64,000 nucleotides of DNA from Astrocystis sublimbata (lineage: Eukaryota; Ascomycota; Sordariomycetes; Xylariales; Xylariaceae): the NCBI GenBank assembly GCA_022453515.1, contig JAJNNY010000053.1:186001-250000 (forward strand), given 5' to 3'. The notes below the pieces were generated by a model. The model was not told the DNA's origin. It made no database searches and saw nothing but the letters and a program-made list of their open reading frames with translations. The position numbers were made by a program, and so were the translations under genes. Below, one piece after another: positions 19,454-42,430 of the stretch (positions are counted from its first letter, which is position 1; each line of letters opens with the position of its first letter).

Positions 19454-22400
19454 ATGTCTGGCCATGGCGATGGCACTCTTCCCGCGACTAGGCGACCGCG
19501 GAAATCGACCGGTCACTCGCCCGTGCGCAGGAAAATAGAGAAAGAAAACATCACAGTCGACCTGGCTAGCTCCCTGGCCGGTAATGCAAGCCGGAGGAAA
19601 CTGCGTAGCAAGAGCATAGGTCCCGGTGGTCTTGATGTTTTGAAGTCGAATACTGGAAACCGGCGCGTGGTACGTATCTCTTGACACCCTCACCGGCCTT
19701 GGGATATCGAGGGCACTGACCGTTACCATGTAGTCGCTGGCTGCGCCCTCCAGACCGCCGCCCCGATCCATCCTCAAGCCTACGATGCCTCATCTACCAG
19801 AGATACCGCCACACAAGTCCAGAGCCTCTTCCCGAAAGTCGCCCCCGTCAGGCACTGTTCAAGGTATCGAGAAACTGGCGAACCCTTTCAACAATGAAGA
19901 CTCATCTTCGTCCGGCACCAAGATCGCGTTGCGCACCGAGGAGGAACAACAGGCTGCTGCTCGAGAGCGTGAGGAGAAGGAGAGGGCAGAGCTTGAAAAG
20001 GAGATTAAGGATCGCCGCGAAGCACGGAGGAAATCCCTCGCCAATCGACGCGTGTCTTTTGCCGCCGAGGCTACCCTTCACACCTTTCACGAAATTGAGT
20101 ACATGCAGGATTCGACCACGTCTACCGACTCCACAAGGAGAGCATCACAAGCCCAGCAGCCCGGCGCCCTCGAAGCCGCTGCCGACCTGCCCTCTGCATC
20201 GTTGGAAGCAGCCGGGGACCCCATATCGTATTCTCCCGAAGACCAAAGGAGCTTGCACCAGAGAAGCCAACGTCGAAGCTCTGGTATCACCAATGACTTT
20301 ACCAACAACCACGATGACTTGACTCTGGCGTCTAGTGTCTATAGTTCCGACTCCGAAGCGACCGAGGGTGTGACCGAGGTACATGAGGAGCTCAGTTCAG
20401 ATTCTGGCAGCGACTCGGATGCTGATGGCGTGACTATGGATCTTGACGCGGACGAAATGACAGGCACTTCCTTTGCTTCTGGCATGACAGCTCGCTCAGG
20501 CTTCGACGATGATGATAACGACACTCTCGATGATGCACTCCGGCAAGCTACGCGACAAGCGGAAACTCAAAGAATTGACGAAGAAGAGGAGATCATTCCT
20601 TCCTTTGGCTGGGTTAAGAAACCTGGATCGAAGCCGATAGGTGCTGCTCGAGGGCAAGATATCCTGCCAAGTCCGACGCATGATGACCCAGAAGATACGG
20701 CGCCCATGGATATGGAGATGACAAGTGCCGTCGGAGGCATCATATCGTCGCAGAATCACATCGAAGACGACCTGCCAGAAGAGGAGATGTCGATGGATGT
20801 TACCCGAGCTCTTGGTGGTATTCTTCCCTCAGCAAGTCATACAACTATTGGACAACTTGCCCACGATGACCACTCTGGGGAGGATCCAATGGAGGACGCC
20901 ACTATGGAGATGACCACGGCGCTTGGTGGTATACGGAATGCTCCCCGTGCCGATGACACGATGGAGCTTGAAGACGATGAGAATATGTCAATGGAGCTCA
21001 CTACTGTCATGGGTGGTGTGATGTCGGCACCTCAACCACTTGCTGTCAAGCGAAGAATGTCCCTTGCTCGTCGTCATACACTGGCGAAAGACGACGAGGC
21101 AACTATGGACATGACCGTTGGACTTGGCCGCATCATACCATCTGGCAACCAAAACGAAGATGAAGACGAAGATGAAGTAGATGCGACAATGGGCATGGAT
21201 ATGACAACAGCAGTTGGAAGGATCATTGGAGCTTCTCCAGCACAGAATCACGCCCAAGCCCGACAAGTGATGGAACAAGAAGTAGACGTACCAGACGGAG
21301 ACGACATACCAGAATTGCCCTTCACAAGCCGTCTACCGGAATTGAACGCGGCTAGCGATATGTTAGATACTGCGAGCCCCAACAAGCTTCCATTCCGAGG
21401 GAGCACAGTTCGCCGTAGCAGCGACCGACGAGGCTCAGAAACTCCCACTGGGAAGTCTCCCAAACGTAATATGCTCCACTCCAAGCCAGCCAGCCCGGAG
21501 AAGCCAGACCTACCTAGTACCCCTCTACAATCGAGTCCGCTGAAGACTCCAACCTCAGTGCTCTCACAGAGACGATCGCCTGCCCCTAAGCGTTCAATCC
21601 CGACATCACCAACCAGATCACCAACCAGATCACCTACTAGATCACCTACTAGGTCGCCTACTAGGTCATCTGCCAAGTCACCGACCAAGTCACCCAGATC
21701 AGCTGCTAGCCACGGATTCAGGTCGTCGATTTTTCGACAGAATTCTGCTACCGGTATCACGACTCCTCAGGTTGTGCTGACCCCGCAGAAGCGTAAGCTC
21801 TCCGGCATTGGTGCTGATCGTCCCGGTCTTGGATCACCAAAAGTCACTGAGCTACTTGATCGACGAGCGTCTATCGGTGATACAGCTGACCAGTTCGTTC
21901 ACCACGAGAATTTCAGAGCTGTAACTTTTACAGAGCCACAGATTATGGAGCGCGAACTCGATTGGGAGCGCCGCGAAGAGCAAGCCAGGGACAACAAAAG
22001 CAGCATTCTTCACGGACGAGCCGATGGAGAAGACGAGAACAACACAGCTTCACTGAAGGATATGATATCAAGTATGACTCCTAAGAAACAACCCATGCGA
22101 GGTCGGAAGAGCCTGCACGTCGGCAGTGCTGCAGGTCTTCTTGGTAAACGACCTGCCGAGCTTGACGATGAAGAAGACGACTATGAACGAGATGGCATCA
22201 AACGACTTAAGAATCATCAAAGCAGTCCTGTCAAAAACGTCCGACTGCGCGCCCCACCATCGAAAGAGGAAACTACCGGGCGATTCAATCGATCTACTAC
22301 TAGAACATTGGAGTTTGGAAATGGTAGTATCTCAGCACCCCCCTTAGCACTGTCGCCTAACAAGGGCGCCAACCTGGCCTCGTCACCCCAGGGCAATAAC

Positions 22401-24101
22401 CGCTCCACGAGCATGACATCTGACCAACCTACCAACACTTTCACCTTTCATGATTATGTTCCCTTGTCAAATGCCGAGGGCGTTGAGGGCAGCAATGGAG
22501 AGCATATTCATCTTCAAGATTTCCTAAATCTGACCAGCATTCGCTTCATGGAATTGACTACCACGAAGCGGAGGCATACTCAGGCTCCTGGCACCCAGAA
22601 GGACGTCCTTCGAGGCGAGAAAGATCTCTCTTTGGAGCGTTGCATTGTAGCTGGTGCTTGCACGGTCCCAATGCTGGAACTTTACCAACATGTAAGTCTG
22701 CCCGCCCTCGAAAACAACCATCAGCTGCACGCATTTGCTAACCTCTATAACTAGTCTTGCCGAGAACTGAAGAAATACATCTCGGAAGGCCGACGAATCG
22801 TGCGAGAGATCGAGACCGAGACGTTCGAGGAGAACCCGCCCCTTTTTAAAGAGTATATGACCGCAACGCCAGAGTTCAAGACTCTGATGGACAACCAGTT
22901 CAAAAACGTCAAGACACACGCGCGGCTACTCAGCAAGGCTATGTGGTATGAATGGCGCATGAAACTCCAAGATGGGCTCAAGGAGGGTCTCGAGAAAATC
23001 TTCGAGGGCATGGAGGAGGACGAGGATTTCATGCAGAAGCAGCAAGCACTCCTGGATGCCGTATTGCCTCGTCTTGTTGAAAAGTTCGAGGGACTGACAA
23101 CGGAGCACGAAAATCTCGAAGCCGTAGCACAAGAGCTTGCAGATTGCGACCCCCAAGACTTACAATCCGTGCGGGCCGAGCTGACCGGCCTTGACTCTGA
23201 TATCGAGGCGAAGAAGCGGAAGATAGAGGAGCTGCAAAGGGAGCTAGCAGAGGCGACATCAGATGTTGATACGGCCTCAAAGCAGAAGCAAACATGCCAC
23301 ACCGACATTCAAGAGGCCGAAAAGGTGCGGGAGGAATGCAGGGGATGGACATCTAATGAAATCAATTCTCTCAAAGGTCAGTGTTCACTTTCTAGTCCTT
23401 CCCTATCTGAGGTACATATCACTAACTCAGTAACAGCCAAAGTTGACGAGCTCGAGAGACGACACGGCTGGGCTATTACAGGGTTGACGGGCACTGTCAT
23501 TTCAATCACGTACGAGCGGGAGATCGAGCTTGTGCTGGACGTCTCGTCTCTTGGCGGAGGCAAGCGCCCTGCAGACTCGCGCATGGATCTCCGGTACATC
23601 GCAGCCAATCGCAATCGCGATCCGTTGCCCGCAACGCCCGAAAAGGAATTCTTCGTCCAGTGCATCAGAGACCATGTGCGCGAGATGGCTCGGTCGCAGC
23701 CGAAGACCAAAATCTACGATATCCTTAGCACAGTCAGCGGGGCGTGGAAGAAGGCAAATCGCGTCGCGGCTGACGTACGGCTCCTGAACTGCACTTTTCC
23801 TACCAAGGTCGCTCGCACCTCGGACACCTCTATCGCCGTGCGCTCTGCGCTGCTTCTGGTCCCGTTGGAGACGAAGGTGGAGATCGAGCTCGCACTGAGT
23901 GGGCAATTCTCGCCCGCTGGTCTGCAATTTGAGATCACGCCCCAAGCGCGCGTTGTTTATGGAGAGCACTTCAAGATTGACAATGTTATTGAATACTTGG
24001 CAACGCGCATTGGGACTACGGTAGGCACTGAGAAGACGGAGTCTTGGAGTGATATCGTCGTTGAATTACATGAGCGATTACTGGCTCGGGGACGGAGGTG
24101 A
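19454..24101 (+). CDS. SPC7: Outer kinetochore scaffold KNL1 / Spc7 / Spc105
   Basis: Microtubule-facing kinetochore scaffold that recruits Bub1/Bub3 and PP1. Four exons: 19454-19669, 19734-22691, 22755-23376, 23437-24101; 1486 residues. Visible motifs: SILK at residues 84-87 and RVSF at 178-181 (the paired PP1-docking sites of KNL1); six MELT-type repeats between about residues 395 and 565 (M-D/E-M/L/V-T followed by a GG or GR turn, as in MSMELTTVMGG); an SPTR repeat tract (about 696-727). The C-terminal half starts at FHDYVPLSNAEG (about 977) and HLQDFLNLTSIRFMELTTTKRR, the fungal Spc7 domain, then a coiled coil (about 1030-1230) and the RWD-type Mis12-binding end. The last intron (60 bases, GTCAGT..AACAG) is a multiple of three, so its removal is supported only by signals. 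Confidence 0.95.
21603..21698 (+). repeat. Coding 12-base tandem repeat (SPTR units) in KNL1
   Basis: Eight units of the type TCACCAACCAGA encode SPTR/SPTK tetrapeptides. Each is an S/T-P site next to a basic residue, so the tract would be dense in CDK-type phosphorylation sites. Likely length-variable. Confidence 0.75.
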
Positions 24102-25688: not shown

Positions 25689-26978
25689 ATGGCTTTTTTC
25701 GTGCGCCCCCACCACTCCGTCGCCATCGTGGCCGTCGGTTTCCTCCTCGCGCTCGCCGCCACCGCCCTCGACCGTAAGTAAATCTTCTCACTTTGCATCC
25801 CTTCTCGCACGCCTGCTTGAGCGAGATCACTGCTGGCGAGTCACGAGATTGACACCTCTCTTCGGATTGAGGAGTCTCTTGTTGACTCGCGAGCTGTGTC
25901 TTCAACTCGAGTCTGGTCACAATCGTCTCACCATTGTGAGCTATCGCACATGCGAGACATGTCATAACTTGAGGTAATCAACCATATGAATAAGTGTTGC
26001 TAACGCAATTGCCCAAAGTCGTCCCCCTCTACTACGGCTTGGTGATCTCCGGCTCCGCCGTCTGGTACGGTTGGAACGTCCATCCCGCCATTGGCGCTTG
26101 GACTTCCGTTGCCGCTGCCATCATCCTCGCCGCCCTCTTCTCGGCTTCCGTCCGGCTGGTCATAGCCGCGACCGTCGCCCTCTCCCTCTCGTTCGCCTTC
26201 ACCGACTACGGTTGGTGGGTGTTCTGGTCCGGACTAGCAGCCATTCATGGCTGGCGAGATCCGAAGATGGCCCTAGTAAGTACTTCCCATCACTCTTCAC
26301 TCCATGAACGTTTGGGCTGCCGTTCCTACGGTAACCGATTTTGGTTCTGTGCCAAAATGGGCCGGCCATATTGCAGTTTCTGGTCTTTGGGCTTTGAAGC
26401 ATTCGTCTTACACATTGAGCAACGAAACTGACTCTTGACTACTCTAGATGGTCATTCCCGAATTGGCACTCGTGCTTTTGGTGTGGTTGTGCGGCCCGTT
26501 CCAATCAACCATTCGTCACCACCTTAAGCCTCAACTTTCCGACTTCTGGCCGTCCGGTTCAGCGATGGACTGGACTTCTCCCATAGTTTCGGCTTGGGAG
26601 ACCTGCGCCCGCCCCACCTGTCTCTTCGCCTTGGCCATCCTGGTCTCGGTGTACGAGCAGGTCGCTTACTACGTAAGTGAGTTGGGCTGTACCGTCATGT
26701 GGACGTTGACGGGTTGCCAATCCCGGTCGCGTTGGTTCCCCCAGTGGCGCCTCGCGGAAATTCAACAGCAGGACAAGGAGCGCCACATCGAGTGGCTCAA
26801 GACCCTCACTCCGTACGATGTCCGTGTCGAACAAAGAAGACAGGCCACGGAGCGATGGGAGGCAGAACTGCGCCGACGTGAACGAGCACTTGCGCCGAGG
26901 GTCGTAGTGTCACCGTTCACTAGTCGAATCATCCCGCAGTTGCCGTCGACTCGGACCCTGTTACCTCGATCGGATTAG
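25689..26978 (+). CDS. Hypothetical multi-pass membrane protein with charged tail
   Basis: Exons 25689-25773, 26019-26275 and 26448-26978 (GTAAGT donors twice; CAAAG and TCTAG acceptors), 290 residues. Residues 1-28 resemble a signal peptide or first membrane helix (SVAIVAVGFLLALAATAL). Four or five further hydrophobic helices follow (YYGLVISGSAVWYGW; TSVAAAIILAALFSASVRLV; VALSLSFAF..WWVFW; ELALVLLVWLCG; LFALAILVSVYEQVAYYV), then a cytosolic-looking basic helix (DKERHIEWLKTL, RWEAELRRRERALA). A perfect GTAAGT at 26673 with a CAACAG acceptor ending 26768 could remove 96 bases in frame. The stop TAG at 26976-26978 is itself a possible TTAG acceptor, and the frame continues open for 2.4 kb (next entry), so this may be the first part of a longer gene. 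No family recognised. Confidence 0.55.
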
Positions 26979-27332
26979 AAAACCGTCTGGGTACCCGTCC
27001 GTGCCGATGCTCCCGTCGCCTCCTCCAAGGCTGTCACCGTCGTCGCCCCTGCTGCTGCTGCTGCTCTCCCCTCACCCCCCCTCTCCCCTCCTCCCCCCCC
27101 TGCGCCCGTCGCACCCGTCGCGCCCGTCGTACCCGTCGCGCCCGTTGCACCCGTCGCGCTCGTCGCACCCGTTGCCAACGTTGCCGTCGCCGTCGCCGTC
27201 GCCCCCCCCACCGTCACCGCCACCGCAGCCGACACTGCCACCACCCCCAGCGCAGCAGCATGCGACACCACCACCACCACCACCAGCGCAGCCGTCGCCG
27301 TCGAAGAGACCGTGCTTAGGCCGGCCTCGCCT

Positions 27333-29375
27333 ATGGTTCTCCGTGTAGCGAGACCAGCAAAGGTAGACGTTGTGGACGAGCTTGCAGCTCTACTAGAAGA
27401 GTTCGAGGTCGACGATGATCTCGACGGAGATGTGAGTGCCCTTAAATGGGTCACTGGAGAAGTGCTCGCCGCCGCCCCCCACCCGGCTCGGTTCATCCCG
27501 GAACCATCGACCTCCTCCTTCATTCCCCCTCCCTCTCCTCTCTCTTCTCTCTCCTCTCTCTCTCTCTCTCCTCTCCCCCCCACCCCCCCTCCGGCTTCGC
27601 CCGCTGTGCCGGCAGCAGTAGAGATCGAGACGGACGTCGAAGCCATCATGGCCGACGCTCCAGAGACAGGACCAGCAACAGCAACAGCAACAGCAGCCGA
27701 AGCCCCCGCGCCCGCCGCACCATCCGCCGCCGACATCTTGTTCGGTGCCGTCGTCGCCCCCGCGATCGACATTTCGTTTGGTGACGCGCTGCCCGACGCC
27801 CCCTTCGCCGCCGCCGCCACTGTTGCTCCCGCACCAGCACCCGCTCCCGCTGCCGCCCCGGTCGAGCTCGCCTCCGCCCCGTTCACCTTTGGTGGACCGG
27901 TCGCGACCGCTCCCGTTCCCGCGCCAGCGCCAGAGCCGCTGGGGTTCTCGTTCAAGGACTTCGCCGGCCCCATACCGCGCGTTGTCTTTGCTCCGGCCGC
28001 ACCAGCACCCGCTCCCGCTCCCGCTCCCGCTTCGGTCGAGCTCGCTTCCGCCCCGTTCACCTTTGGTGGACCGGTCGCGACCGCTCCCGTCGCCGCGCCA
28101 GCGCCAGAGCCACTGGTGTTCTCGTTCAACGACTTCGTCGCCCCCCCACCGCGCGTCGTCGTTGCTCCCACCCCCACCACTGCCTCCGCCACCGTCAGCA
28201 GCGCTCCGACGTTTGTGGCGCCTGCGGCCGGCCCCGTTTCGGCGGGTGCTTTACCAACGGCGTCCACATTCGACTTCTCTTCGGCGCCGTCTATCCCCCA
28301 CCTCGCCTTCCCGCCCGCAGCCGCGCCCGCCCTGCCCCTGCCCCCGCAGCCGCAGCAGCAGCAACAGCCGCAACCGATGGAAGAGGAGGACGACGAAGAC
28401 GAAGATGCCGAGTTCGTCTGGGACGCGGACCCAGACCTCGAGCATTCAGAGCTGTTCGACGAGGAGGCACTGGAGGAGGCTTTGGAGGCTCAGCTTCGGC
28501 AGGAGTTCTTCGAAGTCGGTGGCCGCTACGGAGACGAGGAGGAATCCGAGGTCTCGGACGAGGACGACGAGGACGAAGACGAGGATGACGACGAGTACGA
28601 CGCCGATCTCCCCGCTGCCTCTCCCTCCTTTCCCTCTCCCTCCTTCCCTCTCTCTCCCTCCCTCCACCTCTCTCCCTCCCCCTCTCCCGCACCCGCTTCT
28701 CCGCCGTCGTTTGCAACACCGGAGGCCGGCCCTGTTTTTACAGGTGCTTTACCAATGGGCGCATTCGACTTCTCTCTCCCTGTCCCCGCCGCCGCCCTGT
28801 CCTTCCCTCCTGCCGCCGCCCCTCCGCTGGCGGAGCCGCAGCAGCAGCAGCAGTCGAAGCGACAGGTGCAGCAGCACCAGGAAGAGAGCGAGAGCGACAG
28901 CGACGACGACGAGTTCGAATGGGATGCGGAGCCCGACGTCCCGCACGCGCAGCTGTTCGACGAACGCGCGCTGCAGCAGCGCTTCAACGAAGCCGTCCTG
29001 GCCGAGTCCGACGAGGAGGAGTCTCGCGACGAATCCGACGAGGACGAGGATGCGGATGGCGACGACGAAGATGCCGAAGGCGACGACGACGACGACATCG
29101 ACGACAGCGATGACCGAGACCCCAACTCGGTCTTCACTTATTCGGAGCAGCGCGAGCTGAACCGGATCCTGTCCGTCGAAGACGAAGTCGAGCTCGACTA
29201 CGAGGGAGAGTCGGAGCCTGAGCCTGAGCCTGCGCCTGCGATGGTGTTCGAGGCCGCGCCGGTGGTGGTCGCGCCCGAGCCAGAGCAGATGGACGAGGAC
29301 GACAAGGAGAAGGAGAAGCGCTCGGACTACAGCGATGAGGAGTACGACGATCGCCCCTCCAAGCGACGTTGCTGA
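27333..29375 (+). CDS. Hypothetical Pro/Ala-rich, acidic low-complexity protein with internal duplications
   Basis: From the first in-frame ATG at 27333 the product has 680 residues; the frame is open upstream to 26979, with Ala/Pro/Val-rich content that looks like the same protein. Content in order: a short helical start (VDVVDELAALLEEFEVDDDL), Ser/Pro-rich tract, a duplicated block of about 55 residues with ELASAPFTFGGPVATAPV followed by FSF(K/N)DF, then a larger duplicated module that runs from GPV..GALP and FDFS through a Gln run to an acidic helix (DADPDLEHSELFDEEALEEA in copy 1; DAEPDVPHAQLFDERALQQR in copy 2), and an Asp/Glu-rich end finishing RPSKRRC, a possible nuclear signal. The strong GC and codon periodicity support translation. 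No family recognised; repeated phenylalanine patches between disordered spacers are reminiscent of, but not proof of, FG-type nucleoporins. Confidence 0.55.
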   Translation: MVLRVARPAKVDVVDELAALLEEFEVDDDLDGDVSALKWVTGEVLAAAPHPARFIPEPSTSSFIPPPSPLSSLSSLSLSPLPPTPPPASPAVPAAVEIETDVEAIMADAPETGPATATATAAEAPAPAAPSAADILFGAVVAPAIDISFGDALPDAPFAAAATVAPAPAPAPAAAPVELASAPFTFGGPVATAPVPAPAPEPLGFSFKDFAGPIPRVVFAPAAPAPAPAPAPASVELASAPFTFGGPVATAPVAAPAPEPLVFSFNDFVAPPPRVVVAPTPTTASATVSSAPTFVAPAAGPVSAGALPTASTFDFSSAPSIPHLAFPPAAAPALPLPPQPQQQQQPQPMEEEDDEDEDAEFVWDADPDLEHSELFDEEALEEALEAQLRQEFFEVGGRYGDEEESEVSDEDDEDEDEDDDEYDADLPAASPSFPSPSFPLSPSLHLSPSPSPAPASPPSFATPEAGPVFTGALPMGAFDFSLPVPAAALSFPPAAAPPLAEPQQQQQSKRQVQQHQEESESDSDDDEFEWDAEPDVPHAQLFDERALQQRFNEAVLAESDEEESRDESDEDEDADGDDEDAEGDDDDDIDDSDDRDPNSVFTYSEQRELNRILSVEDEVELDYEGESEPEPEPAPAMVFEAAPVVVAPEPEQMDEDDKEKEKRSDYSDEEYDDRPSKRRC

Positions 29376-29533
29376 GCCCTCGTGCTCGTTTGCTTTTCAC
29401 TCACATTGCTATCACCATTCGCATTGCTACTCGGCGGCATTTGTACGATTAATGGTTCGATTGTTCGATTGATGGATTGATTGATTGATGTTGGCGGCAC
29501 TATGTGTGTGTATCTGCCTGCCTGTCTGTCTGT

Positions 29534-31130
29534 CTATCTGGGTTTGACCTTGGTCCACCCACTATTGCTCTTCTCTCTATTCTCGACAGTGGCTATAACT
29601 TGAGGAGGATTATCGCCGCTGCCGCCGCTTCGGACCGTGTTGACGCTCATGTAGCTGTCGAAGCCGAACCGTGCGCCCCGCTCACCGATCTTTGGTTTCG
29701 GTCTCGCCCCACCGACCAGCACCCCGTCATCGGCGTCTTCCGGAGCCCACGCGTCGTCTTCAAGCACCTCCCATTCCGGCATCGCGCTCTCTTGGTTGAG
29801 CTTCGATTTCAGCTTGTCCCTTAGCTTCATCGGATTCGGCAGCTTGAAGTTTCGGATCAGTTCGGTTCCGTTTGCGCTGCCCAGGAATGTGTGCCCGCTG
29901 CCGTGAGAGTACAGACCCATGCGAGGTGCGGCTTTGCTCAGCTCGGTCGGCTCGTCCCCTTCTTCATCGACAGCATCTTGGTGGCTGGTGTCGTCGGCGA
30001 TCTGTTGCGGATTGCGCTGAAGGGACGAGTTGATGAGGAGATTGTACATGTTCCGTCCGAGACAGGTGAAGGTGTCGAACTGGCTGGTATCCCCCACAGA
30101 CACGCCTTGCGTTCGGCACAGCCAGACAATGTCGTACCCGAGAAGAGAGACGGCTTCGATAAAGGCGCTATACGTTGCTGGATCCTCTTTGGCGAGCGTT
30201 GTGAGCGGCTTGTCTATGTACAACGGCCTCGGAATCGGAACATTGGCGAACTGCAGATCTCGCGGATCCGGTGGTATCGGCGACGAACCGGGAAAAGCGA
30301 CTTCACCATGTTGATAGGATGACCCCAACGAGAATATGGTGGGCCGAGGATAATCATTGTGTGGTGGCGTGATCTCGGCCGGCAGACGAATCGCCAGATA
30401 ATGCGACGCGAGGAACAACAAGTGTGTGATGTGACCAAGCGACGCCGACAGCTGTTCTGGATTCACGCCTGCACACGGTTAGCTTTGCTCGAACGATCAG
30501 TGGCTTCTGAGGAGGAGCCCTACTGTTCATGTTCTGCAGATCGACGATCTCGATGCCTCCAATCTTGTACCCGTATCGTGCCGGTGTTCCTCGACGCACG
30601 CGTTGCAACCGATACAGCTTGGCGACTTCCATGCAAAGGGCGGCTTTGTACTGTGTCATGCCTTCGTACTCCCGGTCCCAGTTGTACTTCAGCATCCTGA
30701 TGGCCTTGCTCGTCTCATCCGACTCCCTGTTCCGGCGGGCAGGTATTCCCTGAGAGGCGATGGCGAGATCCGACTTCTTGCGTGCGATGGCGGCTCGACG
30801 TTCCTTGATCTCGTTCTTGGCTGCTGTGATCTCATCGCGAAGTCGGTCGGCGGATGCGATTATGCGACTTGTGGTTTCTCGTGCCTGGCTTGTCTCGGAA
30901 GCGCAATCCTCGACATAGGCGGAAGAGCGAGGCTTCTTTGTGGTGGAAGATCCGGAACTCGAATCGTCGATGCCCAAGACCTTGTTGATGCGAGCTTCAA
31001 TGACGTCTTTCTCGATGAGCGTCTTGGCAGTCGCAATACGTCCTTCGTACAGTTCATTTCTCGCATCGACGGCACAGAGAAAGGGCAGGCGCTTGGGGTG
31101 ATGCAGCCGCTCGCAGATATCGCAGTTCAT
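29534..31130 (-). CDS. ATG14: Autophagy-specific PI3-kinase complex I subunit Atg14
   Basis: Targets the Vps34-Vps15-Atg6 lipid kinase to the pre-autophagosomal site. Two exons, 30524-31130 and 29534-30468, with a 55-base intron (GTAGGG donor, GTGCAG acceptor); 513 residues. The N-terminus has the Atg14 cysteine motif (Cys3, Cys6, Cys19 in MNCDICERLHHPKRLPFLC), followed by helices (residues 20-80) and a coiled coil rich in Arg, Glu and Ala (about 90-145). Then come the conserved fungal segments YGYKIGGIEIVDLQNMN, LGHITHLLFLASHYLAIRLP, RPLYIDKPL and LGYDIVWLCRTQGV of the Atg14/UVRAG domain, and an acidic tail. A longer in-frame Met at 31199 exists, but the Cys motif starts at 31130. The N-terminal cysteines favour Atg14 over Vps38/UVRAG. 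Its 3' end is convergent with the preceding plus-strand gene, 158 bases away. Confidence 0.85.
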
Positions 31131-31772
31131 GATGGGCGACCTTCTGATCGGATGCACAGCGTTGTAGCGTTTGTGTGAGCCAACCTTGTCTCGGAGCACG
31201 GAATCAGTCTATTGTCGTTCTCGCCTGAAGTCTACGGAGGGCAGCTCGTTTCCCAAACAGTGGTATGAAACGAGTGATGAGAGCGACCTGTGAGCGGCAT
31301 GTCTACTTATGGCTACAAAAGAGCTCGTGACGAGGTGTGAGTCAGCCAGTGCTTGCGTTGGGGGATGCAAAAGAAAGATTGAACCCGACCGGCACGAGAC
31401 GCAGCATTCAGGAAGCGTTGAGATGACACCACACGGGAAGGTTAGCTACAGGCTACGAGTACAGCACTCGCCGCGCTCACTCAGCCCATGTGACGGTGGA
31501 TGAGGGTGGGACCTGCAGTGGGGGCTGCAGTGGAACCCCTCGCTTCTTCGGTGGCGCTTGCCGGTACTGGCTGGACCTTGCTGGATGGACCCTGCTCACC
31601 TGCAACCAATCCATGCTAAGGCAGACGGTACGTACCTTGATCGGGTGGCATCTCGCAACAGGCACAGGCACAGGTACCTCCGTACTACATGTCTCATTCA
31701 TTCAAGCGGAATCTACAAAGTACCAGATGAGATCAACTCAGATCAATTATCAACCAGCTGAGATCTTGGAGC
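31131..31772. promoter_or_regulatory. Divergent intergenic region between ATG14 and the small gene at 31773
   Basis: About 640 bases between two divergent start codons; should carry both promoters. No repeat or RNA gene recognised. Confidence 0.4.
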
Positions 31773-32610
31773 ATGTCTACAACTCCTGCATCTTCATCGC
31801 CTGCCCAGATGCCTCGCACACCCGAACGCACCACCATAGACCAATCCATGTTGGTCGAGCCTCCTACCGAGATGGGTCACTTTACACAATCTCACGAGGA
31901 CGGCTATGTGAGTCCGGATACTGAAGAACAAGATGATTCAGCTCCGCCCACACAAGTTCTGGATATCGACACAAATCACAACGAGAATCCGAACGAAGCA
32001 CTGCACAGAGCTCTCCAGCCACATCATACCAAAGCTGGTTTGCTCGAAACACACAAGCGCCAAGGCGACGCACCGGACATGACGGACCCGGCCATCGCAC
32101 CCTTTGACTGGGAAGACTTCGAGGACCGCTACCAAAAGGCACTCGAAGAAGCAGACGAAAACGAGAAACAATTACTCCAAGAGTTTGCCCAACTGGTCAA
32201 GGTCCGCGCACACACCATTCTCTGGCAGCAACAATCAGTGGGGGACTGATCTTGCTCTGCTAGTACTTCAACGTCTGGGCCTCTGCATCGTCCACTTACG
32301 ATAATGAGCGCGCAGTCAAGCGGTTAGTTCTCTGCAACTCATCAATTGCACACACAAAACCAACAACAAAACACAAAAACAAAAAACACCATTTTGAGAA
32401 CACGGCCTGATGAAGACCATCTCTAGATTGCAAACGCGTGAGCGATACGTCGCACTTTCCGAACAATCCTTGGATCAAAAGAAACAACATCGTAAGATCA
32501 AGTTGTACCACGCATGCATCAAATGAGAAAAGCCTAACCGCTGCCAACCACCAGTTTCCGAGGTTGTGAAAGCATTCCAGAGTGCGCTCGCACTCCTCAA
32601 AGCGACATAA
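31773..32610 (+). CDS. Small conserved fungal protein, 202 residues
   Basis: Four exons: 31773-32201, 32264-32322, 32427-32491 and 32555-32610. The first half is acidic and disordered. The second half gives a helical domain widely seen, unnamed, in filamentous fungi: APFDWEDFEDRYQKALEEAD, then YFNVWASASSTYDNERAVKR, LQTRERYVALSEQ and KQHLSEVVKAFQSALALL. Joining these segments requires all three introns, and each junction restores a conserved residue, so the model is firm although the first donor (GTCCGC) is weak. Function unknown; the helical end could be a coiled coil or an oligomerisation domain. The hairpin array begins about 110 bases after its stop, on the same strand, so the array may be part of a long 3' transcript of this gene. 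Confidence 0.8.
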
Positions 32611-32717
32611 ACGGGACGAAACTCTTTCTGCACGACCCCGAATGTTGCTATACAATCGCCACGATTGATCCATTCAATCCGACTTCGACCCTGCAGGCAC
32701 ATATTTCTGCGAATTTC

Positions 32718-35620
32718 GATGTCACGATCTACGCCACAGGGGGAGTGGTTACGAGATTGATTTGCCGGTCTACATACGGTTTCAACAAGACTTAGGCTTT
32801 GCGGACACACCTTTCTGCAGCCTTCATGTCGCCATCTCGATATCACTTGGGGGAGTGATTATGAGATAGTTCAATCTACATCTTGTTTCCAAACTCTGGC
32901 TTTGCAGACACATCTTTCTGCAGCCTCGATGTAATGATCTCAATGTCGCTTGGGGGAGTGACTATGAGATCTTTGAGAAGAACATACATGTTTGAACTTT
33001 TCATCGCGCTTACCATCTTGCTATGCGCGCGCAATACAATACAATACAATACAATACAATACAATACAAACGAAAACTTACAAAAAAAAGAACCATTTCC
33101 GAACCATATTGATCTCTCTCTGGTCAAACTGATTCGTTCCATGCTGTTGGGGACAGCGCAATACAACACAAACCAAAACTTGCAAACCAAAACCATTGCC
33201 GAGTCATATTGATCTGATCTCTCTGATCAAACTGATTCGTCTCATGCTGTTGGGGACAGCGCCTGTGAGACATCCAATCTGACCTTTTCTCTTGCTCAAC
33301 ACCTTGATATGTCAGAACTGCACAACTCAAACCAAAACTCAAACCAAGATACTGCTACACAGCACATTTACTCGTGTCGTGGGGGCGACATTTGAGAGAA
33401 ACTCACTGCACACAAACCAGAAAACCACTACGCAACACATCAACAATTCATTGTCATGTTGCGATTGATACCGAATTCAATCTCTATTTCAATTGACTAC
33501 GTCTCAAGCCGTGGGGGCGGCATTTCATGAGATATAGTCTTTGCGCTCACTTTCTTACTGATCCATGAGCACCACAACACACCACACCACACAAACCGAA
33601 ACAGTGTTGTACAACTCATACTGAAACATCACTATACGACACACCATGACACACCAACGACATCTATTGTTGCGCGTCATACCAATTTGCAATTCTCAAA
33701 TTGAATTGATTTCTCGTGCTGTTGGGGACAGCATTTGAGAGAAGCTTACTGCACACATACCACAAAACTACTACACCACACAAAACAACAAAACAACAAC
33801 ACGTTGTCACTTGAACGATTTCTCGAGCCATGGGGGTGGCAACTTTGAGAGACTCGTACATTTTCTACACACTTACACGCACCGTTCTTCAAGATACGTG
33901 TGAGATAATATGCACACACACACAGGATAATCATTTCGATAACCAATTCTTGATGTCCAACTCCAAATCACCATCCATCTCGAGTCGTTGGGGGCGACTT
34001 TTGAGAAACACCGCACCATTCTTACGCATCCATGCGTACTCGGAAAACCAAAATACTACTACACAGCACATCATCACATGCCAAATGTGATGCTGCGAGA
34101 GTTTGGGGACTCTCAAATCATTTCAAATTCCGACACAAAACCATTCATCTATCTCAAGTCGTTGGGGACGTCTTTTGAACAACAACAACAACAACTCATT
34201 GGCATCGTGCCATTCATGCCAATCTGCAATTCTCATGCTGTTCGGGGCAGCTTTTGAGAAACTTACTACACACAAACCAAACAACTACAACACAACATAT
34301 CGCAACAACAACTGCTCGTTGCCATCTTGCAATTCATACCAATCTGCAGTTTCTAACTCCATTGACGATTTCTCAAGCCGTGGGGGCGGCAAATTTGAGA
34401 CATCGTCTTTGCGCTCAGCTTCCTGCTGGGCGGTAAAACTTTACACAACACAAACCAAAACATTGCTTTACAGCACATGCCGAAATACTACTACACGGCG
34501 CCAATGGTCGTCAATCTTTGCGACTCAAATCAACTTCAAACTTCTTCAAGCGAACTGACTCATCTCATACCGTGGGGGCGGCAACTTTGAGAGATCGTCT
34601 TTACGCCTAGCTTCTTGTTGAGCTACGAAACCTGCACAACGCAAACCAAACCATTGCTTTACAGCACATGCCGATACACTACTACACGGCGTTAACAATC
34701 GCCAATCTTGCGACTCATGTCAACTTCGATTCTCAAATCGAATTTGATTTATCTCATGCTGTGGGGCAGCATTTAAGAGAAAACTTACATACAAACCAAA
34801 ACACCGCAACCAAACACCAACGCGGTACAATGTTGCCATTCACACCAATTTATCAACATCGAATCACTTATCATGCTATAGGGGCAGCATTTGATACAAA
34901 CTTATATACAAACCAAAACACTGCAACTAAACACCAACGCGGTACCACGTTGCCATTCACACCAACATGTCAACGTCGAATCACTTCCTCTTAAGCCGTT
35001 GGGGGCGGCTTTGAAAGCTTAACACTTGATCTTGACTTCGCGCGTACCACTTTACCGCACGCCAGTACTACACAGCAAAGAGCAAGACCACACTACACAA
35101 CACAAACCAAGACACATTCTGGAAACTACAACCACTTTCCAAATCGACTTTCATCTCATGCCATGGGGGCGGCATTTCAGATACTCGTACCTTTTCTACA
35201 CACTTACACGCACGCACCTTTCTTCATGATGCGTGTGAGGTAGCATGCACATAAACATGGGATGATTATTACATAATGTCCAAAATCAAATCATTAATCC
35301 ATCTCAGATCGTTGGGGACGATCACACAAACCAAGACACAACTACACCACACAACTACACCATACAAGCCAAATACCATCTGCGAAATCATCCCGGCGCT
35401 CGCACCGTTTTACCACTTTCAAAGCACAACCAACACATCTCAAAGCCACGGGGGAGACTCTTGAGATATACGCAGTGCCGCGCGCAATCACACAAACCAA
35501 TACGCAACTATACCACAAAAACCAAACACCATCTACCAAATCATGTGAGCGGTCGCGTCATTTTGCCACTTTCAAAACGCAACCAACGCATCTCAAAGTT
35601 ATGGGGGAGACTTTTGAGGC
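32718..35620 (+). repeat. Array of about 22 hairpins with (T)GGGG(G) loops and changing but complementary stems
   Basis: Each unit reads TCTCA, a 4-8 base stem, a TGGGG(G) loop, the complementary stem, then TTGAGA. Stems seen include ATCACT/AGTGAT (32842-32859), GTCGCT/AGTGAC with a G-T wobble (32945-32962), GCTGT/ACAGC (33143, 33246, 33718), TGTCG/CGACA (33375), GCCG/CGGC (33508, 34377), GCCA/TGGC (33827), AGTCG/CGACT (33983), GAGAGT/ACTCTC (34097), AAGTCGT/ACGTCTT with one mismatch (34156), GCTG/CAGC (34237, 34758), CCG/CGG (34570), ATGCT/AGCAT (34873), AAGCCG/CGGCTT (34993), ATGCC/GGCAT (35158), GATCGT/ACGATC (35307) and CTCAAAGT/ACTTTTGAG (35592). Spacing is about 85-200 bases. Between hairpins a CACAAACCAAAAC-like word recurs at least ten times. 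No coding frame spans the array. Confidence 0.85.
33032..33069 (+). repeat. AATAC microsatellite inside the hairpin array
   Basis: Seven or so uninterrupted copies of the pentamer AATAC between the third and fourth hairpins. Confidence 0.9.
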
Positions 35621-35689
35621 ATACGCGTTTTCTGCGCAGTGCCGCTCACCACATCACGAATTACACTATCATCACACAACACAACAAAA

Positions 35690-36214
35690 TCAAGGGGTTG
35701 AAGAGAGAGGAGTATTGAGGAGAATGGAGAGGAGGATAGAGAGGCAGAGAGAGGCCGGGGGAGAGAGAAGCAAAAAGAAAGGAAAGGAAAGAAGAAGAGG
35801 CAAGAAGAAGCCGAAGAAGCCGAAGAAGCCCAAAAATCAAAAGGAGGCAAAAAGTTAAAAAGAATCAAAAGAATCCAAACACGAAGGCAAAAAGAAGCCG
35901 AAAAGCCAGAAAGAAGGCAAGAAGAAGCCAAAAAGAAGCTACAAAGAGGGAGAGAGAGATGTAGGAAGAGAGAGAGTATGTGTGTGTATGTGTGTGATGA
36001 GTATGTCGAGAGGGTGAGAGTGAGAACCCAAGGAAATGAGAGAGGAAAGTGTGTGTGTATGTCGAGAGGGAGTGTGTAAGAGGGAGAACGAGCGCGCGAG
36101 AGTGAGACCAGAAATGAGAGGGAAAAGGCGAGAGAGACGATGTGTGAGAGAACCAAAAAAAAAAAAAAAGGGGGAGAGGGAGAGAGAGAGACGATGAGAG
36201 GGAGAGAGAGAGAC

Positions 36215-36298
<84 letters not shown>

Positions 36299-36310
36299 GC
36301 AGGCGAGGGA
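35690..36310 (+). repeat. Purine-rich tract with a long GA repeat
   Basis: About 600 bases in which the plus strand is almost entirely A and G, including AAG/AGAAG-type runs (35760-35940), a run of 15 A at 36156-36170, and an almost pure (GA)n of about 78 bases at 36217-36294. Translating it gives only low-complexity Arg/Glu or Ser/Leu strings, so I do not call a gene. Mirror-repeat polypurine tracts of this length can form triplex (H-DNA). Confidence 0.85.
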
Positions 36311-36404
36311 GGGATAGAGAGAAGTAATACACGAAAAAGGACATATCACGGAGTCCCAGGGACTCGAGCCATTCATTGTTCCGATCTACGAAACGGAATC
36401 AACA

Positions 36405-36815
36405 CAACTCACATCACGAGGGCAGCTCTTGAAAGATGCCACCTGCTCTGTGCTCGCTACATTGCACAGGCCAAAATCCTACGACACGATACGAACCAAA
36501 CATCAGGTACATTACATTACAACAAAAACGAAACACCAAATTGCGACAGTTTCCGCCTGCTCGTCGCATTTCGCAATCCTCAAAATCAAGACGAATCATC
36601 TCAAGCCACGATGCAGCAATCGAGAGATGTCGCCTGCTCTGTGCTCGCTACATCGCACAAGCCAAAACCCTACGACACGATACGATCCCAATATCGTACA
36701 TTACAACAAAAACGAAACACCAAACTGCGAACGCTCCCAGCTGCTCGTCGTTTTTCGCAAATTTCGAAATCAAGACGATCCATCTTAAGTCAGATACAGC
36801 AATCGAGAGGTCTCT
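36405..36815 (+). repeat. Tandem duplication of about 191 bases
   Basis: The block beginning CCTGCTCTGTGCTCGCTACA at 36442 recurs at 36633 with the same downstream order (GCACA.GCCAAAA.CCTACGACACGATACGA, then ACAAAAACGAAACACCAAA). Each copy is preceded by a weak TCTCAAGCC..GCAGC-like relic resembling the hairpins of the neighbouring array. Copies are about 85-90 percent identical by eye. Confidence 0.75.
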
Positions 36816-37395
36816 TATCTACTCTACACGTGCTTACATCGCACAATTCGAAAAAAACTTGCACAACACAATGAATAATCATGTTCGCCATTTTGCAATT
36901 CCAAATGGAATCAACTCAACTCAAGCAGCTCGGAGCGGCATTCGGCATGACTGCCAACACGCTCAGTTTCGCCGCGCTTTACGCGCGCTACAATGCACAA
37001 TCCAAAGACAACTGCACACAAACATCCATGATAACACCATCTTGGCCATTTAAAAATCTTCAAATCACACCCCAAGTTCTAGGGGCAGGCAATGGGCAAT
37101 TGAGACACGAACACTTGGGCATCAAAATACTTTACTAGAAACTTGGGACAGCGCTGTCAATGCTAGGAGCTCGTGGCTGTGCCCTACGATGTCCGACCTA
37201 CCGAGCCCCGAGCTAGGTACTTACCTAACCAGGTAGCTACAGCCCAGCTACCTACCTAGGTACCTACCTAGCTCCGAGGCAGCCAAGGCAACCTATCTTC
37301 ATCTTTACCAAAAAAAAAATCATTCACTCAACATCATTGCGCATTTCCACACATATCATTGCGCACACACACAATGAACGCGTAACCACTACGCG
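36816..37395. other. Right edge of the repeat region and promoter of the gene at 37396
   Basis: Contains weak array-like remnants (CAAGCAGCTCGGAGCGGCATT near 36925 and TCTAGGGGCAGGCAATG near 37078) and then a dense run of TACCTACCTAGGTA words (37195-37275). No gene recognised. Confidence 0.45.
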
Positions 37396-38152
37396 ATGTC
37401 TGCAGTTCTGAAAGCTCCGATGGCGTTTGGAGCGCCAGAAGTATCCCAGGTATGTCTGCTCTCAACACCCTTACAGCTTCTCTTCCTAACTTGACTGGAC
37501 GCTGACAGCTTGCAAGGCAGACATCGAAGCATTCCACGCGACGCATTTCTCCAATCATGCCTTAAGCCTTTTCGACACCCAGTTCCTACGAGCAAACTCC
37601 ACACAAACACAAGATGCCGACCATCAGTACCACGAGGATGGCGCCGAAGAGGAAGACGATGGCTTGGGATACTACCCTGACGGGGTGAAGCGCACCCTGA
37701 CCGATGAAGAAATCGCCATCTTCCGCCATTCCGAAATCGAAGCACTGCGCCGTGCTGAAAGGAATGCTCTGAAGCAGGACACAACGATAGACTCTCCTGC
37801 AACCAACTCCATTGGTGGCGATGTCGTATCCACGCCAGTCGACAGCGCGCCGTCTCGCGCTGACTCCGAAGCCATGGACGAAGCCGCAGACGGCAGCGAG
37901 GACGGAGAGATCGAAACCGAGAAGCCAGTCCTGACCAAGGCTGAGATCAAACGCCAGAAAAGGCTACGGGCCAAGCAGAGGAAGAGGGACATACAAAAAT
38001 TTCAGCCTGAGAAGAAGCCAGATTTGCGCAAGAGGACGTGGGATGTTGTGGACGCTGGTATGGACAGCTTGCACTACGACGACCTCGAAATGCTGCAATG
38101 CTCAGGCTCTGCATCGAATGCTCAGCGCCGGCAGATATCGTATGACGATTGA
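37396..38152 (+). CDS. Conserved fungal protein, possibly DUF3807 family
   Basis: Two exons, 37396-37449 and 37517-38152 (GTATGT donor; the in-frame acceptor is TGCAAG, ending 37516), 229 residues. After an Ala-rich start comes ADIEAFHATHFSNHALSLF, an acidic stretch, then LGYYPDGVKRTLTDEEIAIFRHSEIEALRR, which I associate with fungal DUF3807 proteins, and a basic region (KAEIKRQKRLRAKQRKRDIQ) that looks nuclear or RNA-binding. The acceptor AAG is less usual than the CAG eight bases earlier, but only AAG keeps the frame. Function not known. Confidence 0.75.
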
Positions 38153-40027
38153 ATCCTCCACCGTCTGTCTACACACACACACATATACACGCCACACACA
38201 TACACCACACACATACACACCACAAAGAGCCCACTACAACACTCTCGTCGCCACAAGACATCGAAGCGAATCGTCTGCAATATTCAGGTTAGTAGTCACT
38301 TTTATTTCAAGTTCCATCCTGCACACATCCACATGATGAAAAGCATTGTATCGTCATCCTTAGACGGAAGCTAGCAGATCCCTGCGATTTGGCCTAGCCA
38401 AAGAGTATCGGGTCGTAAGCCTGGCGCGTGTCGAGAAAATTAATCTTCTCTCTGAAATGTGGCTTTACTCATAGACAACATTGACTACGTCACCATGTTC
38501 TCAAGCTAATTCTTGCTAGACTAGGTTGCCCAATCCTACGAATTGTCCCTGATGAGCCTGACGCCTCCAAGTGGCTACTCTATACCTGCTACAAAACTAT
38601 GCTACAACAAACCGGACGACGCGAAATCTGTGTATCAGACAAGCAAGATTGCCATGCTTCTCACATCACCACTGGCACAAGATGTCATTCTCGACCGTCT
38701 ACATCGTCCCTCGAAAGGATCATTGCACCCTGATAGGATGACGAGTCTCATGGAGCAGCAACACCTAGGAAGGGAGATGGGTGGAGGAGAAGGCTGATCA
38801 GAGGGGAACTCTGGAAGTTGAAAATGCAAGGAGGGACAAGATGAGTGCATAAAGCAGCTAAAGCAGCTGTGTTGGTCAGGATAGTGGAACATGCATCGAC
38901 CCCTTTGCCGTGGTCAGTACAGCAGTACAAAAGGATGCGGTTTGGAGACATGACGATGCTGGAATACAATCAACTTGATGCATGCCCACACAATTGAGAG
39001 CGAATGGCAAACGTGAACTTGACTTAACGTGCATGTGAGTTGGCAGACCAAGGGGACAATCATCGTAAAAGTGAGGCCCAACCTCTCATGGCCCGTAATT
39101 TGCAGAAGGAAGTATTTCACGTAAACCAGCACAAGTTGTACTGCATAGGGTGCCTTGAACCAGCACGGTGCGGTGACTCCCGTCCCGGCCCGTTTTGACA
39201 TCCTGCCTTGCATATGTAATTCATCTTAGACTGTATTACAGAAACGGGATTGAGGGTCGGATAACGAGATCTCCCGTTAGCCGTAGCGCAGGGTTCTCAA
39301 CAATTAGCTAAGAGGTTCCAATTGACACCTGTTTGGAATTTAAGTGATTGAGTGAATGCGTGATTGAGATCTTGAAAGGCGTGAGGCCGCTGGAGTTGGT
39401 ATTACCAGCCAAGAATAAGGTACCTGCCTCTAGGTACTATTGCGCTCTACCCCGCTGATAAGTCGCTGGGGCGGCTTCTGCTTGCAGGGTGTGGAGTCGG
39501 CTAGCTGGCGTGGAGAAAGCAGGGTGGAGGGACAGAGGCGGGAGGCAGGCGGCACAGGCGGGCAGTATCGAACGTCTCGCGACCCCCCCCCCATCTTCAC
39601 CCATCGTGGTGTATTACATACCAACCAGAAGGCAGGCAGGCACGACCGGCGCGAACCTACCTCTCGCGCGCACACCGTTGCGGGCACTCGACTCCAGCCA
39701 CCTAGGTAGATTAGGTACGCACTGCAACGCCACCTGGCGAGCTGGCAGTATCACTCGAGCTCCCGGCCAGCCTCACCTTTCGCAGGCTTCCCTGCTCTTC
39801 CGCGAGACTCATCCATCCCCCGCGGCCTCGACGCCAATCTCCCACCCGGCATCGCTATCTTAGTATCTTCTCCCCTCTCTGCCAACACCGTCCCAGCCAG
39901 CCAGCAGGGCCTTGGTCCTACCAATATTGCTGAAGTCGCTTGAGTTCCCGACCAGCCCAACCCATCCAGCTCATCCGACCCAACCGACCCTATCAGCGTC
40001 GAGACGGCCTCAGCCGGAACAGCAAAT
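38153..40027. other. Intergenic interval, 1.9 kb
   Basis: CA-rich microsatellite right after the stop (38170-38225), otherwise unremarkable sequence. No ORF with family signature. The last 300 bases are C-rich and probably form the CK2 promoter and leader (39750-40027). Confidence 0.5.
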
Positions 40028-41619
<1,592 letters not shown>

Positions 41620-42430
41620 ATGGTTAGCTTGTAGTTTCATATCCCGATGTCGCTGGGGCTCTTTCTCTGCAGCCCCCTTTCTCTATTCGAGACACCCGAA
41701 TTTATACCCCACCTGCAGAGTTTTGATGGCATCATCGGCATCGTGTTGGAATCACGAAACGCACAGGCGCTTCTCGGTCAAGGGAGATTGCGCAGGTTCG
41801 ACTGCGATCGCGACCATTGGTCAAAGTGAGGCTACCTTCATGCTAAGCTAGTCAGTCTCTTGTTCATAGATATCTGCTATAAGGCTATGCGATGATTTTA
41901 CTAGGATAGTAGTGAGGTCATTTCTTCCCCAGTCATCATAGGGGACGGCGATTAGGTACAATGCATAGTACTTTGGCTCATCAAGCCATAATTGAAGTGA
42001 CATCTTTCACGAACATTTTCCTGCGGAATAAAGCACTTTGATGCATAGCGTCTTGAGGATGAGCGTTGTGATGGGGCTACTATTGCTGTTTGTTGTTTAT
42101 TACGTTATCTCGAGCCGCCTGAGAATCTTAAGAATCGTAGGTTGAAGCAATGTTTTGTTTCTTTCGGCTGTGTAGAAAGTTTGAATTATCATCAGCTCAT
42201 ATGCAGCACCTACATATAAGCAAGCAATCGTCGAATATGCCAGTCAGACAAAATGGGTTGGTTGCGTGAATATCGACTCTGTCTACCGCCTGTCTGTATT
42301 TTGGAGTCGCCCTTCGGCTGATCATCATACAAGGAGGAAGTCGAGGCATCCATCCATCCCTCTACTCAAGGTATCATTTGGAATTTGCCACTAGCTCTTT
42401 TCATTAAACAATTACCTTACCACCAAATCC
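41620..42430. other. Convergent intergenic interval
   Basis: About 800 bases between the 3' ends of the CK2 gene and the methyltransferase gene; expected to hold both 3' UTRs. No gene recognised. Confidence 0.5.

What the first reader, a model, noticed from the sequence alone, without database searches (positions are those of the whole stretch)
32718..35620. Array of about 22 same-orientation hairpins with a conserved GGGG loop and covarying stems
Each unit has TCTCA, stem, (T)GGGG(G), complementary stem, TTGAGA. The stem bases change between units but pairing is kept: GCTGT/ACAGC, GCCG/CGGC, TGTCG/CGACA, GCCA/TGGC, GATCGT/ACGATC, GAGAGT/ACTCTC, AAGCCG/CGGCTT, ATCACT/AGTGAT, and GTCGCT/AGTGAC, which needs a G-U wobble. 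Compensatory change with a constant loop and constant strand is what selection on RNA (or cruciform DNA) structure leaves. Neutral tandem repeats would lose pairing. I know of no fungal family with this form. It could be a long non-coding RNA or extended 3' UTR of the gene ending at 32610 that offers many identical loops to a protein, or a small-RNA precursor cluster.
Basis: partly seen in the sequence, partly recalled or inferred. Interest (0 to 1): 0.92.

Follow-up and report, generated by a model that had tools for sequence, protein, structure and literature searches.

The report
Fungal tandem array of G-loop hairpins
Between two ordinary genes of a fungus lies a row of 22 small hairpins that share a GGGG tip while their stems change in matched pairs; this may be a repetitive regulatory RNA, but the matched changes may equally come from a known DNA copying error, so function is unproven.

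Summary
Between gene A (stop 32610) and a DUF3807 gene (start 37397), on a contig matching Astrocystis sublimbata (Xylariaceae), 22 runs of GGGG or more lie on the + strand; 19 of 22 sit in stems of at least 5 pairs. Five apical pairs x 22 units: 100 of 110 Watson-Crick; exchanged arms give 73 on average, at most 87 in 2000 trials. Tree-aware nulls never reach the observed covariation (0 of 2000, three trees). Pattern and DNA searches found no copy elsewhere in the genome, but the patterns recover only 9 of the 22. The inference 'selection on RNA' is only partly supported: in nine sister alignments stems changed as fast as flanks (20/106, 129/665), only the G-run more slowly (3/52); G-T and A-C mismatches are equally rare; folding shows no strand preference. 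That fits DNA-level arm homogenisation by template switching. I favour a locally amplified, degenerate tandem repeat whose arms are kept complementary largely by mutation, with some constraint on the G-run (0.45), over a functional hairpin RNA (0.33). Transcription and relatives could not be tested.

The parts
32726..35620 (+). main array: 22 hairpin units in one orientation, loop-to-loop spacing 59-211
32733..32749 (+). hairpin 1 GCCAC-AGGGGGA-GTGGT (outermost G-T)
32843..32858 (+). hairpin 2 TCACT-TGGGGG-AGTGA
   Evidence: tandem sister of hairpin 3 (D20)
32946..32961 (+). hairpin 3 TCGCT-TGGGGG-AGTGA (one G-T)
33143..33157 (+). hairpin 4 GCTGT-TGGGG-ACAGC, outer arms lost
33246..33260 (+). 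hairpin 5 GCTGT-TGGGG-ACAGC
33375..33390 (+). hairpin 6 TGTCG-TGGGGG-CGACA
33507..33522 (+). hairpin 7 (A)GCCG-TGGGGG-CGGC(A)
33718..33732 (+). hairpin 8 GCTGT-TGGGG-ACAGC
33826..33841 (+). hairpin 9 (A)GCCA-TGGGGG-TGGC(A)
33983..33999 (+). hairpin 10 AGTCG-TTGGGGG-CGACT
34098..34113 (+). hairpin 11 AGAGT-TTGGGG-ACTCT
34158..34172 (+). hairpin 12 GTCGT-TGGGG-ACGTC (one T-T mismatch)
34237..34251 (+). hairpin 13 GCTGT-TCGGG-GCAGC (closing T-G)
34376..34391 (+). hairpin 14 (A)GCCG-TGGGGG-CGGC(A)
34568..34583 (+). hairpin 15 TACCG-TGGGGG-CGGCA (one A-C mismatch)
34757..34771 (+). hairpin 16 TGCTG-TGGGG-CAGCA
34873..34890 (+). hairpin 17 ATGCT-ATAGGGGC-AGCAT
34994..35010 (+). hairpin 18 AGCCG-TTGGGGG-CGGCT
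35158..35175 (+). hairpin 19 ATGCC-ATGGGGGC-GGCAT
35308..35322 (+). hairpin 20 ATCGT-TGGGG-ACGAT, 3' outer arm absent
35444..35459 (+). hairpin 21, two of five apical pairs lost
35595..35614 (+). hairpin 22 AAAGT-TATGGGGGAG-ACTTT
35690..36300 (.). GA-rich low-complexity stretch that splits the array
36400..36950 (+). degenerate tail: diverged unit copies without GGGG loop
   Evidence: by eye; D14, D19; one weak match
31773..32610 (+). upstream gene A (uncharacterised conserved protein; exons 31773-32201, 32274-32322, 32427-32491, 32555-32610, read by eye against P0001)
37397..38152 (+). downstream DUF3807 gene (product spliced by eye)
   Evidence: PF12720, 4.6e-48

Best explanation
A locally amplified and now degenerate tandem repeat (22 units plus a decayed tail). 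Each unit carries a small quasi-palindrome, TCTCA-like arm / variable stem / (T)GGGG(G) / stem' / TGAGA-like arm, and copies arose by tandem duplications of about 100-190 bp. Shown: the hairpins, tandem descent, covariation beyond shared ancestry, no copy elsewhere in the genome by the searches made. Inferred: arms stay complementary mainly because DNA polymerase template switching within the quasi-palindrome copies one arm onto the other, so paired changes accumulate at about the neutral rate without selection on an RNA. The G-run is in addition held by some constraint (a DNA- or RNA-binding protein, or concerted evolution) that is not identified.
For: Nine sister alignments: apical stems 20/106 sites changed, outer arms 20/96, flanks 129/665. 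Neutral homogenisation predicts stem rate = flank rate (my reasoning); selection on pairing predicts a lower one, and a halved rate is rejected at P = 0.003. G-T 3 against A-C 2 of 110 cells. Adjacent double changes between related units: AG/CT to GA/TC between u33990 and u35314, TC/GA to CT/AG between u33381 and u33724. Hairpins without a G loop are in mild excess in the spacers: 12 observed, 7.1 expected, sd 2.3, maximum of 60 shuffles 12; one of them, TTCGATT-CTCA-AATCGAA at 34725, is only a quasi-palindrome in its sister copy (by eye). Tandem copies with periods 103, 191 and 117. Template switching homogenises short inverted repeats in yeast (PMC8604942, passages; PMC3820800, abstract) and can create and maintain hairpins (PMC8794818).
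Against: The G-run changed at only 3/52 sites (Fisher P = 0.014; but units were recognised by GGGG). GGGG is kept in the 17 distinct units of the nine sister pairs where 66% each would be expected (P = 0.001 for 17 of 17; 0.006 if the doubtful unit near 33048 is counted as a loss; a rough, ascertained count). Mutation alone does not explain that. Arms of 5-8 bp are short for template switching. Another interval of the window, 53100-54400, has a similar hairpin excess (12 against 5.1), and the excess in 36350-37390 (8 against 3.1) lies largely outside the tail, in TAGGTACC-type repeats, so the regional argument is weak. Numbers are small, sister pairs were chosen by hand, one unit is used in two of the nine, and a stem rate 25% below flank is not excluded (P = 0.13). 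PMC8794818 itself calls the role of template switching in maintaining short stems less clear.
Confidence: 0.45

Rival explanations
1. A functional structured RNA (long non-coding RNA, or long UTR of a neighbouring gene) in which 22 stem-loops in series offer the same UGGGG loop to one protein; the stem sequence is free as long as it pairs.
For: Constant loop with varying but paired stems; G-run slower than flanks; A/C-rich, G-poor spacers on the + strand (A 35%, C 30%, G 12%), which would leave linkers open; longer basal stems in several units.
Against: Stems not slower than flanks; no G-U preference; no strand preference in local folding (13 of 22 helices above 0.5 on +, 14 of 22 on -; 11 of 22 in foreign flanks); six of 22 units with an apical non-pair, a tail without the loop; no Rfam match in the array; no transcript data; single locus.
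Confidence: 0.33
2. A cluster of DNA sites: a G-run recognised in duplex DNA, or a cruciform / single-strand hairpin, acting as a regulatory region between the two genes.
For: The G-run is the only part slower than flank; symmetrical G-T and A-C mismatches suit DNA hairpins; lies upstream of the DUF3807 gene.
Against: A duplex-binding protein needs no complementary arms; the array ends 1.8 kb before the DUF3807 start; no match elsewhere in the genome for the full-unit patterns or the array DNA.
Confidence: 0.14
3. A small mobile palindromic element (MITE-like or a GC-cluster-like hairpin) that inserted repeatedly.
For: Hairpins are recognisable where flanks at fixed distance are not.
Against: No match outside this locus (the patterns catch 9 of the 22 units here); 22 of 22 in one orientation; flanks of many units are homologous.
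Confidence: 0.03

Closest known systems
Quasi-palindromes homogenised by template switching (PMC8604942, PMC3820800, PMC8794818)
   Same: Short inverted arms with a short spacer, arms made to match, multi-base paired changes
   Different: Single sites and RNA genes in the parts I read; here over 20 tandem copies with a constant G loop
Xist A-repeat (PMC3734131, passages read)
   Same: Tandem copies of a short palindromic core with a constant loop, separated by spacers of simple composition
   Different: T-rich spacers, ATCG loop, proven lncRNA; here no transcript evidence, and homology was neither tested nor expected
Smaug/Vts1 recognition elements (PMC9893680, PMC2895634, passages read)
   Same: Stem with a fixed loop; GG in the loop
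   Different: Loop is CNGG(N); here mostly TGGGG(G)
Minisatellite / degenerate tandem repeat
   Same: Tandem copies with periods 103, 117 and 191 seen by TRF
   Different: Units share mainly a hairpin with co-varying arms; TRF sees only three two-copy pairs that contain the hairpin

Membership tests
Template-switch-homogenised quasi-palindrome | Inverted arms differ between copies yet match within a copy | tested here: met
   100 of 110 WC, exchanged mean 72.8
Template-switch-homogenised quasi-palindrome | Paired changes at about the neutral rate, several adjacent bases at once | tested here: inconclusive
   20/106 against 129/665; adjacent double changes in two comparisons; small numbers
Template-switch-homogenised quasi-palindrome | Spacer (loop) inversions, an optional mark | tested here: not met
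   0 of 22 loops inverted, no CCCC in the array; PMC8604942 saw inversions only with arms over 9 bp, so this does not exclude it
Smaug/Vts1 recognition element | CNGG(N) loop on a stem | tested here: not met
   base before the G-run is T in 18 of 22
Xist A-repeat-like lncRNA array | Tandem hairpins with constant loop and simple spacers | tested here: met
Xist A-repeat-like lncRNA array | Transcribed and functional as RNA | not testable with these tools
   no RNA data held
Small-RNA (milRNA) precursor | Long near-continuous duplex for Dicer | tested here: inconclusive
   7 to 19 pairs per unit, most with bulges or internal loops; the length Dicer needs is recalled
Known Rfam family | Match at gathering score | tested here: not met
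   (26000-42000): one sub-threshold hit at 26470-26533, outside the array
Dispersed mobile element | Copies elsewhere in the genome | tested here: not met
   patterns recover 9 of 22 known units, so diverged copies could be missed

The most novel reading that the evidence does not exclude
A new kind of fungal non-coding RNA: a roughly 3-kb transcript with 22 modular stem-loops that display a UGGGG loop, joined by open A/C-rich linkers, working as a multivalent platform or sponge for one loop-binding protein, and evolving by tandem duplication with free but paired stems.
Probability: 0.28. Interest if true: 0.8.

Novelty: new variant of a known kind. Interest (0 to 1): 0.52.

Why it matters
If the hairpins act as RNA, this is a compact natural multivalent loop display in a fungus and a clean system to find the reader protein. 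If they do not, it is a warning of equal value: an array in which strong, tree-corrected covariation arises without RNA selection, so that covariation alone would be a false proof of RNA structure. The array can tell the two apart because every unit is a replicate with its own flanks as internal control.

Tried and rejected
Mobile element: disfavoured, no dispersed match and homologous flanks. Coding repeat: unlikely, 8 of 21 spacings are multiples of three, about what chance gives; two ORFs in the tail have no Pfam hit; the ORF at 34103-34558 was not searched. Known RNA family: none in the array. Vts1/Smaug loop: first base does not fit. The first MAFFT alignment of the 22 units misplaced u34105 and others and was not used. 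A3 (14 units) and A2 without its two misaligned rows plus u33149 (16 units) were used for covariation, so u32739, u32849, u32952, u34105, u35450 and u35603 are outside (A3 also lacks u33149 and u35314); the 22 are. A free extension of the stems ran far into A/C-rich spacers and was set aside; its raw tally of G-T 14 and A-C 40 comes from that over-extension and is not used. Outer arms: perfect 5-bp helices in 11 of 22 but 9.3 on average with exchanged arms (234 of 1000 reach 11), so no covariation is claimed for them. Hairpin conservation at fixed positions overstates the contrast with flanks because spacers vary in length; one search replaces it. Projecting flanks to find units that lost GGGG gave many uninformative short matches; the one long match (near 33048) may be a duplication edge rather than a lost hairpin. 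In one search an AT-rich control, L021, has up to 9 hairpins sharing an AT-rich loop word in 3 kb, so hairpin clusters as such are not unique; the array has 12 with perfect stems and GGGG. Literature: searches; the lists were capped (12 of 52, 8 of 375). No title or abstract start listed describes this array; the library holds open-licence papers only.

Full report
Place and organism. The window is C139:186001-250000 of a 42.6-Mb assembly of 189 contigs. C139 is 261,631 bp. The gene just upstream of the array best matches P0001, Astrocystis sublimbata F4808DRAFT_292651 (89% over the whole length with my partly mis-spliced query); read by eye, the four exons give P0001 letter for letter, and P0001 comes from a contig of 261,631 bp. 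The genome is therefore almost certainly that of A. sublimbata (Xylariaceae). The array lies between gene A (stop at 32610; no Pfam family for its first exon; 118 homologues with E <= 0.001) and a DUF3807 gene (start 37397, PF12720). Three homologues of gene A, from Monosporascus, Grosmannia and Colletotrichum, are annotated as one protein with the DUF3807 domain (P0075, P0102, P0112), which suggests that the two genes are close neighbours elsewhere and that the 4.8-kb interval here is an expansion. This is an inference from annotation; the intervals themselves could not be read.

The hairpins. The 22 G-runs of four or more between 32.7 and 35.63 kb are on the + strand, and no C-run of four occurs there. 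19 of 22 have stems of 5 or more pairs (G-U allowed), against 48 of 327 other G-runs of the window. In 143,555 bases from 16 other places of the genome no 3-kb stretch has more than 5 such hairpins per strand; the array has 19. Genome-wide, patterns for the full unit with up to 3 mismatches give 9 matches, in the array without exception, and 0 for the reversed control; an exact spaced pattern gives 1, in the array. These patterns thus recover 9 or 10 of the 22 units here, so diverged copies elsewhere could escape. The array DNA as query matches only itself, with the caveat that this search scores only its best candidates. Two core patterns that leave pairing free find 8 array and 31 other sites; 7 of 8 and 4 of 31 are fully Watson-Crick (judged by eye; Fisher 1.5e-4).

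Covariation. In the apical five pairs 100 of 110 cells are Watson-Crick, 3 G-T, 2 A-C, 5 other; the register was chosen for best pairing, in the control too. With 3' arms exchanged between units the mean is 72.8 and the maximum 87 in 2000. On the MAFFT alignment of 14 units, 90.5% of cells pair, 11 cells are changed on both sides and the score is 0.434; no shuffle of 500 reaches these three, but 'further pair types' is not raised (482 of 500 reach it) and 'pairs with a change on both sides' is reached by 41 of 500. With 16 units and trees from the full unit, the hairpin alone or the flanks alone, an R-scape-like null of my own gives a covariation count of 29-43 on average against 158 observed and a G of 10-14 against 59 (0 of 2000 each); the number of paired cells, 88, is reached by 12, 9 and 3 of 2000. 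Shared ancestry alone is therefore not enough.

How the units descend. TRF finds two-copy tandem repeats with periods 103, 191 and 117 that contain the hairpin, and the repeat search finds sister copies of 79-90% identity. Nine hand-chosen sister alignments gave the central result: changed sites are 20/106 in apical stems, 20/96 in outer arms, 129/665 in flanks and 3/52 in the T+G-run. Stem and flank rates do not differ (P = 1.0), a halved stem rate is rejected (P = 0.003), a rate of three quarters is not (P = 0.13), and the G-run is slower (P = 0.014). About 53 pairs at 19% per site would give about 2 doubly changed and 16 singly changed pairs if arms were independent; reading the alignments by eye I count about 5 compensated pairs, 4 broken pairs, 1 wobble and 2 gained pairs. 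Arms therefore co-evolve quickly, at a rate not visibly reduced.

Reading of this. Strong selection on pairing should slow the stems; homogenisation of arms by template switching should not, since each change is either copied to the other arm or reverted (my reasoning). G-U tolerance is expected of a transcribed RNA and is not seen, on few cells. Local folding gives mean helix probability 0.59 on + and 0.58 on -, and 0.47 for the hairpins in foreign flanks. Hairpins outside the G-loop family are in mild excess in the spacers (12 against 7.1), but also in an unrelated interval (12 against 5.1); the excess in 36350-37390 (8 against 3.1) lies largely in TAGGTACC-type repeats outside the tail. On the other side, the G-run is conserved: the 17 distinct units of the sister pairs keep it where 66% each is expected (P = 0.001, or 0.006 if the doubtful unit near 33048 is a loss), though units were recognised by it. 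The tail (36.40-36.95 kb) lacks it and yet was duplicated. So something seems to hold the loop in the main array, and mutation alone does not account for it. I place the DNA-level account first (0.45) and the RNA account second (0.33).

Comparison with the known. The anatomy resembles the A-repeat of Xist, tandem palindromic cores with a constant loop and simple spacers (PMC3734131, passages), and Smaug/Vts1 elements in having a fixed loop on a stem, but the CNGG loop (PMC9893680 and PMC2895634, passages) is not met. The process resembles quasi-palindrome correction (PMC8604942, passages; PMC3820800, abstract; PMC8794818, outline, Results part 1 and Discussion). No description of this array turned up in the listings of the paper searches.

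Limits. Sister pairs were chosen by hand, one unit is used twice, and units were recognised by the very G-run whose conservation is measured.

Noticed in passing
32234-32250: Intron 1 of gene A (32202-32273) contains a perfect 6-bp hairpin with a GGGGG loop, ATCAGT-GGGGG-ACTGAT, 500 bp before the array; may be chance.
   Followed up: partly
36400-36950: Tail of diverged unit copies (two repeat families 82% and 86% identical between copies) that lack the GGGG loop; some keep TCTC/GAGA-like arms.
   Followed up: partly
35690-36300: GA-rich low-complexity stretch with a (GA)n run of about 59 copies and a long A run, between array and tail.
   Followed up: no
34725-34742 and about 34540: Spacer hairpin TTCGATT-CTCA-AATCGAA is perfect in one copy and only a quasi-palindrome in its sister copy.
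   Followed up: partly
19785-24101, 49641-53078, 29534-31199, 60033-61601: Two kinetochore or centromere genes (Spc7/KNL1, Scm3) and two autophagy genes (ATG14/Vps38-like, Atg6) lie within one 64-kb window.
   Followed up: no
40028-41618: Protein kinase gene (Pkinase, one exon tested); by eye a casein kinase II alpha subunit.
   Followed up: no
53100-54400: Another stretch with an excess of short perfect hairpins (12 against 5.1 expected).
   Followed up: no
37210-37274: Inverted repeat of TAGGTACCTACC type, 29-nt arms at 83%, just before the DUF3807 gene.
   Followed up: no
P0075, P0102, P0112: Public annotations fuse gene A with its DUF3807 neighbour into one protein in three other fungi, probably an annotation error.
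   Followed up: partly
L021 (G000:C50:20001-24454): AT-loop hairpin cluster, up to 9 hairpins sharing a TTAT loop word in 3 kb; perhaps a decayed repeat.
   Followed up: no
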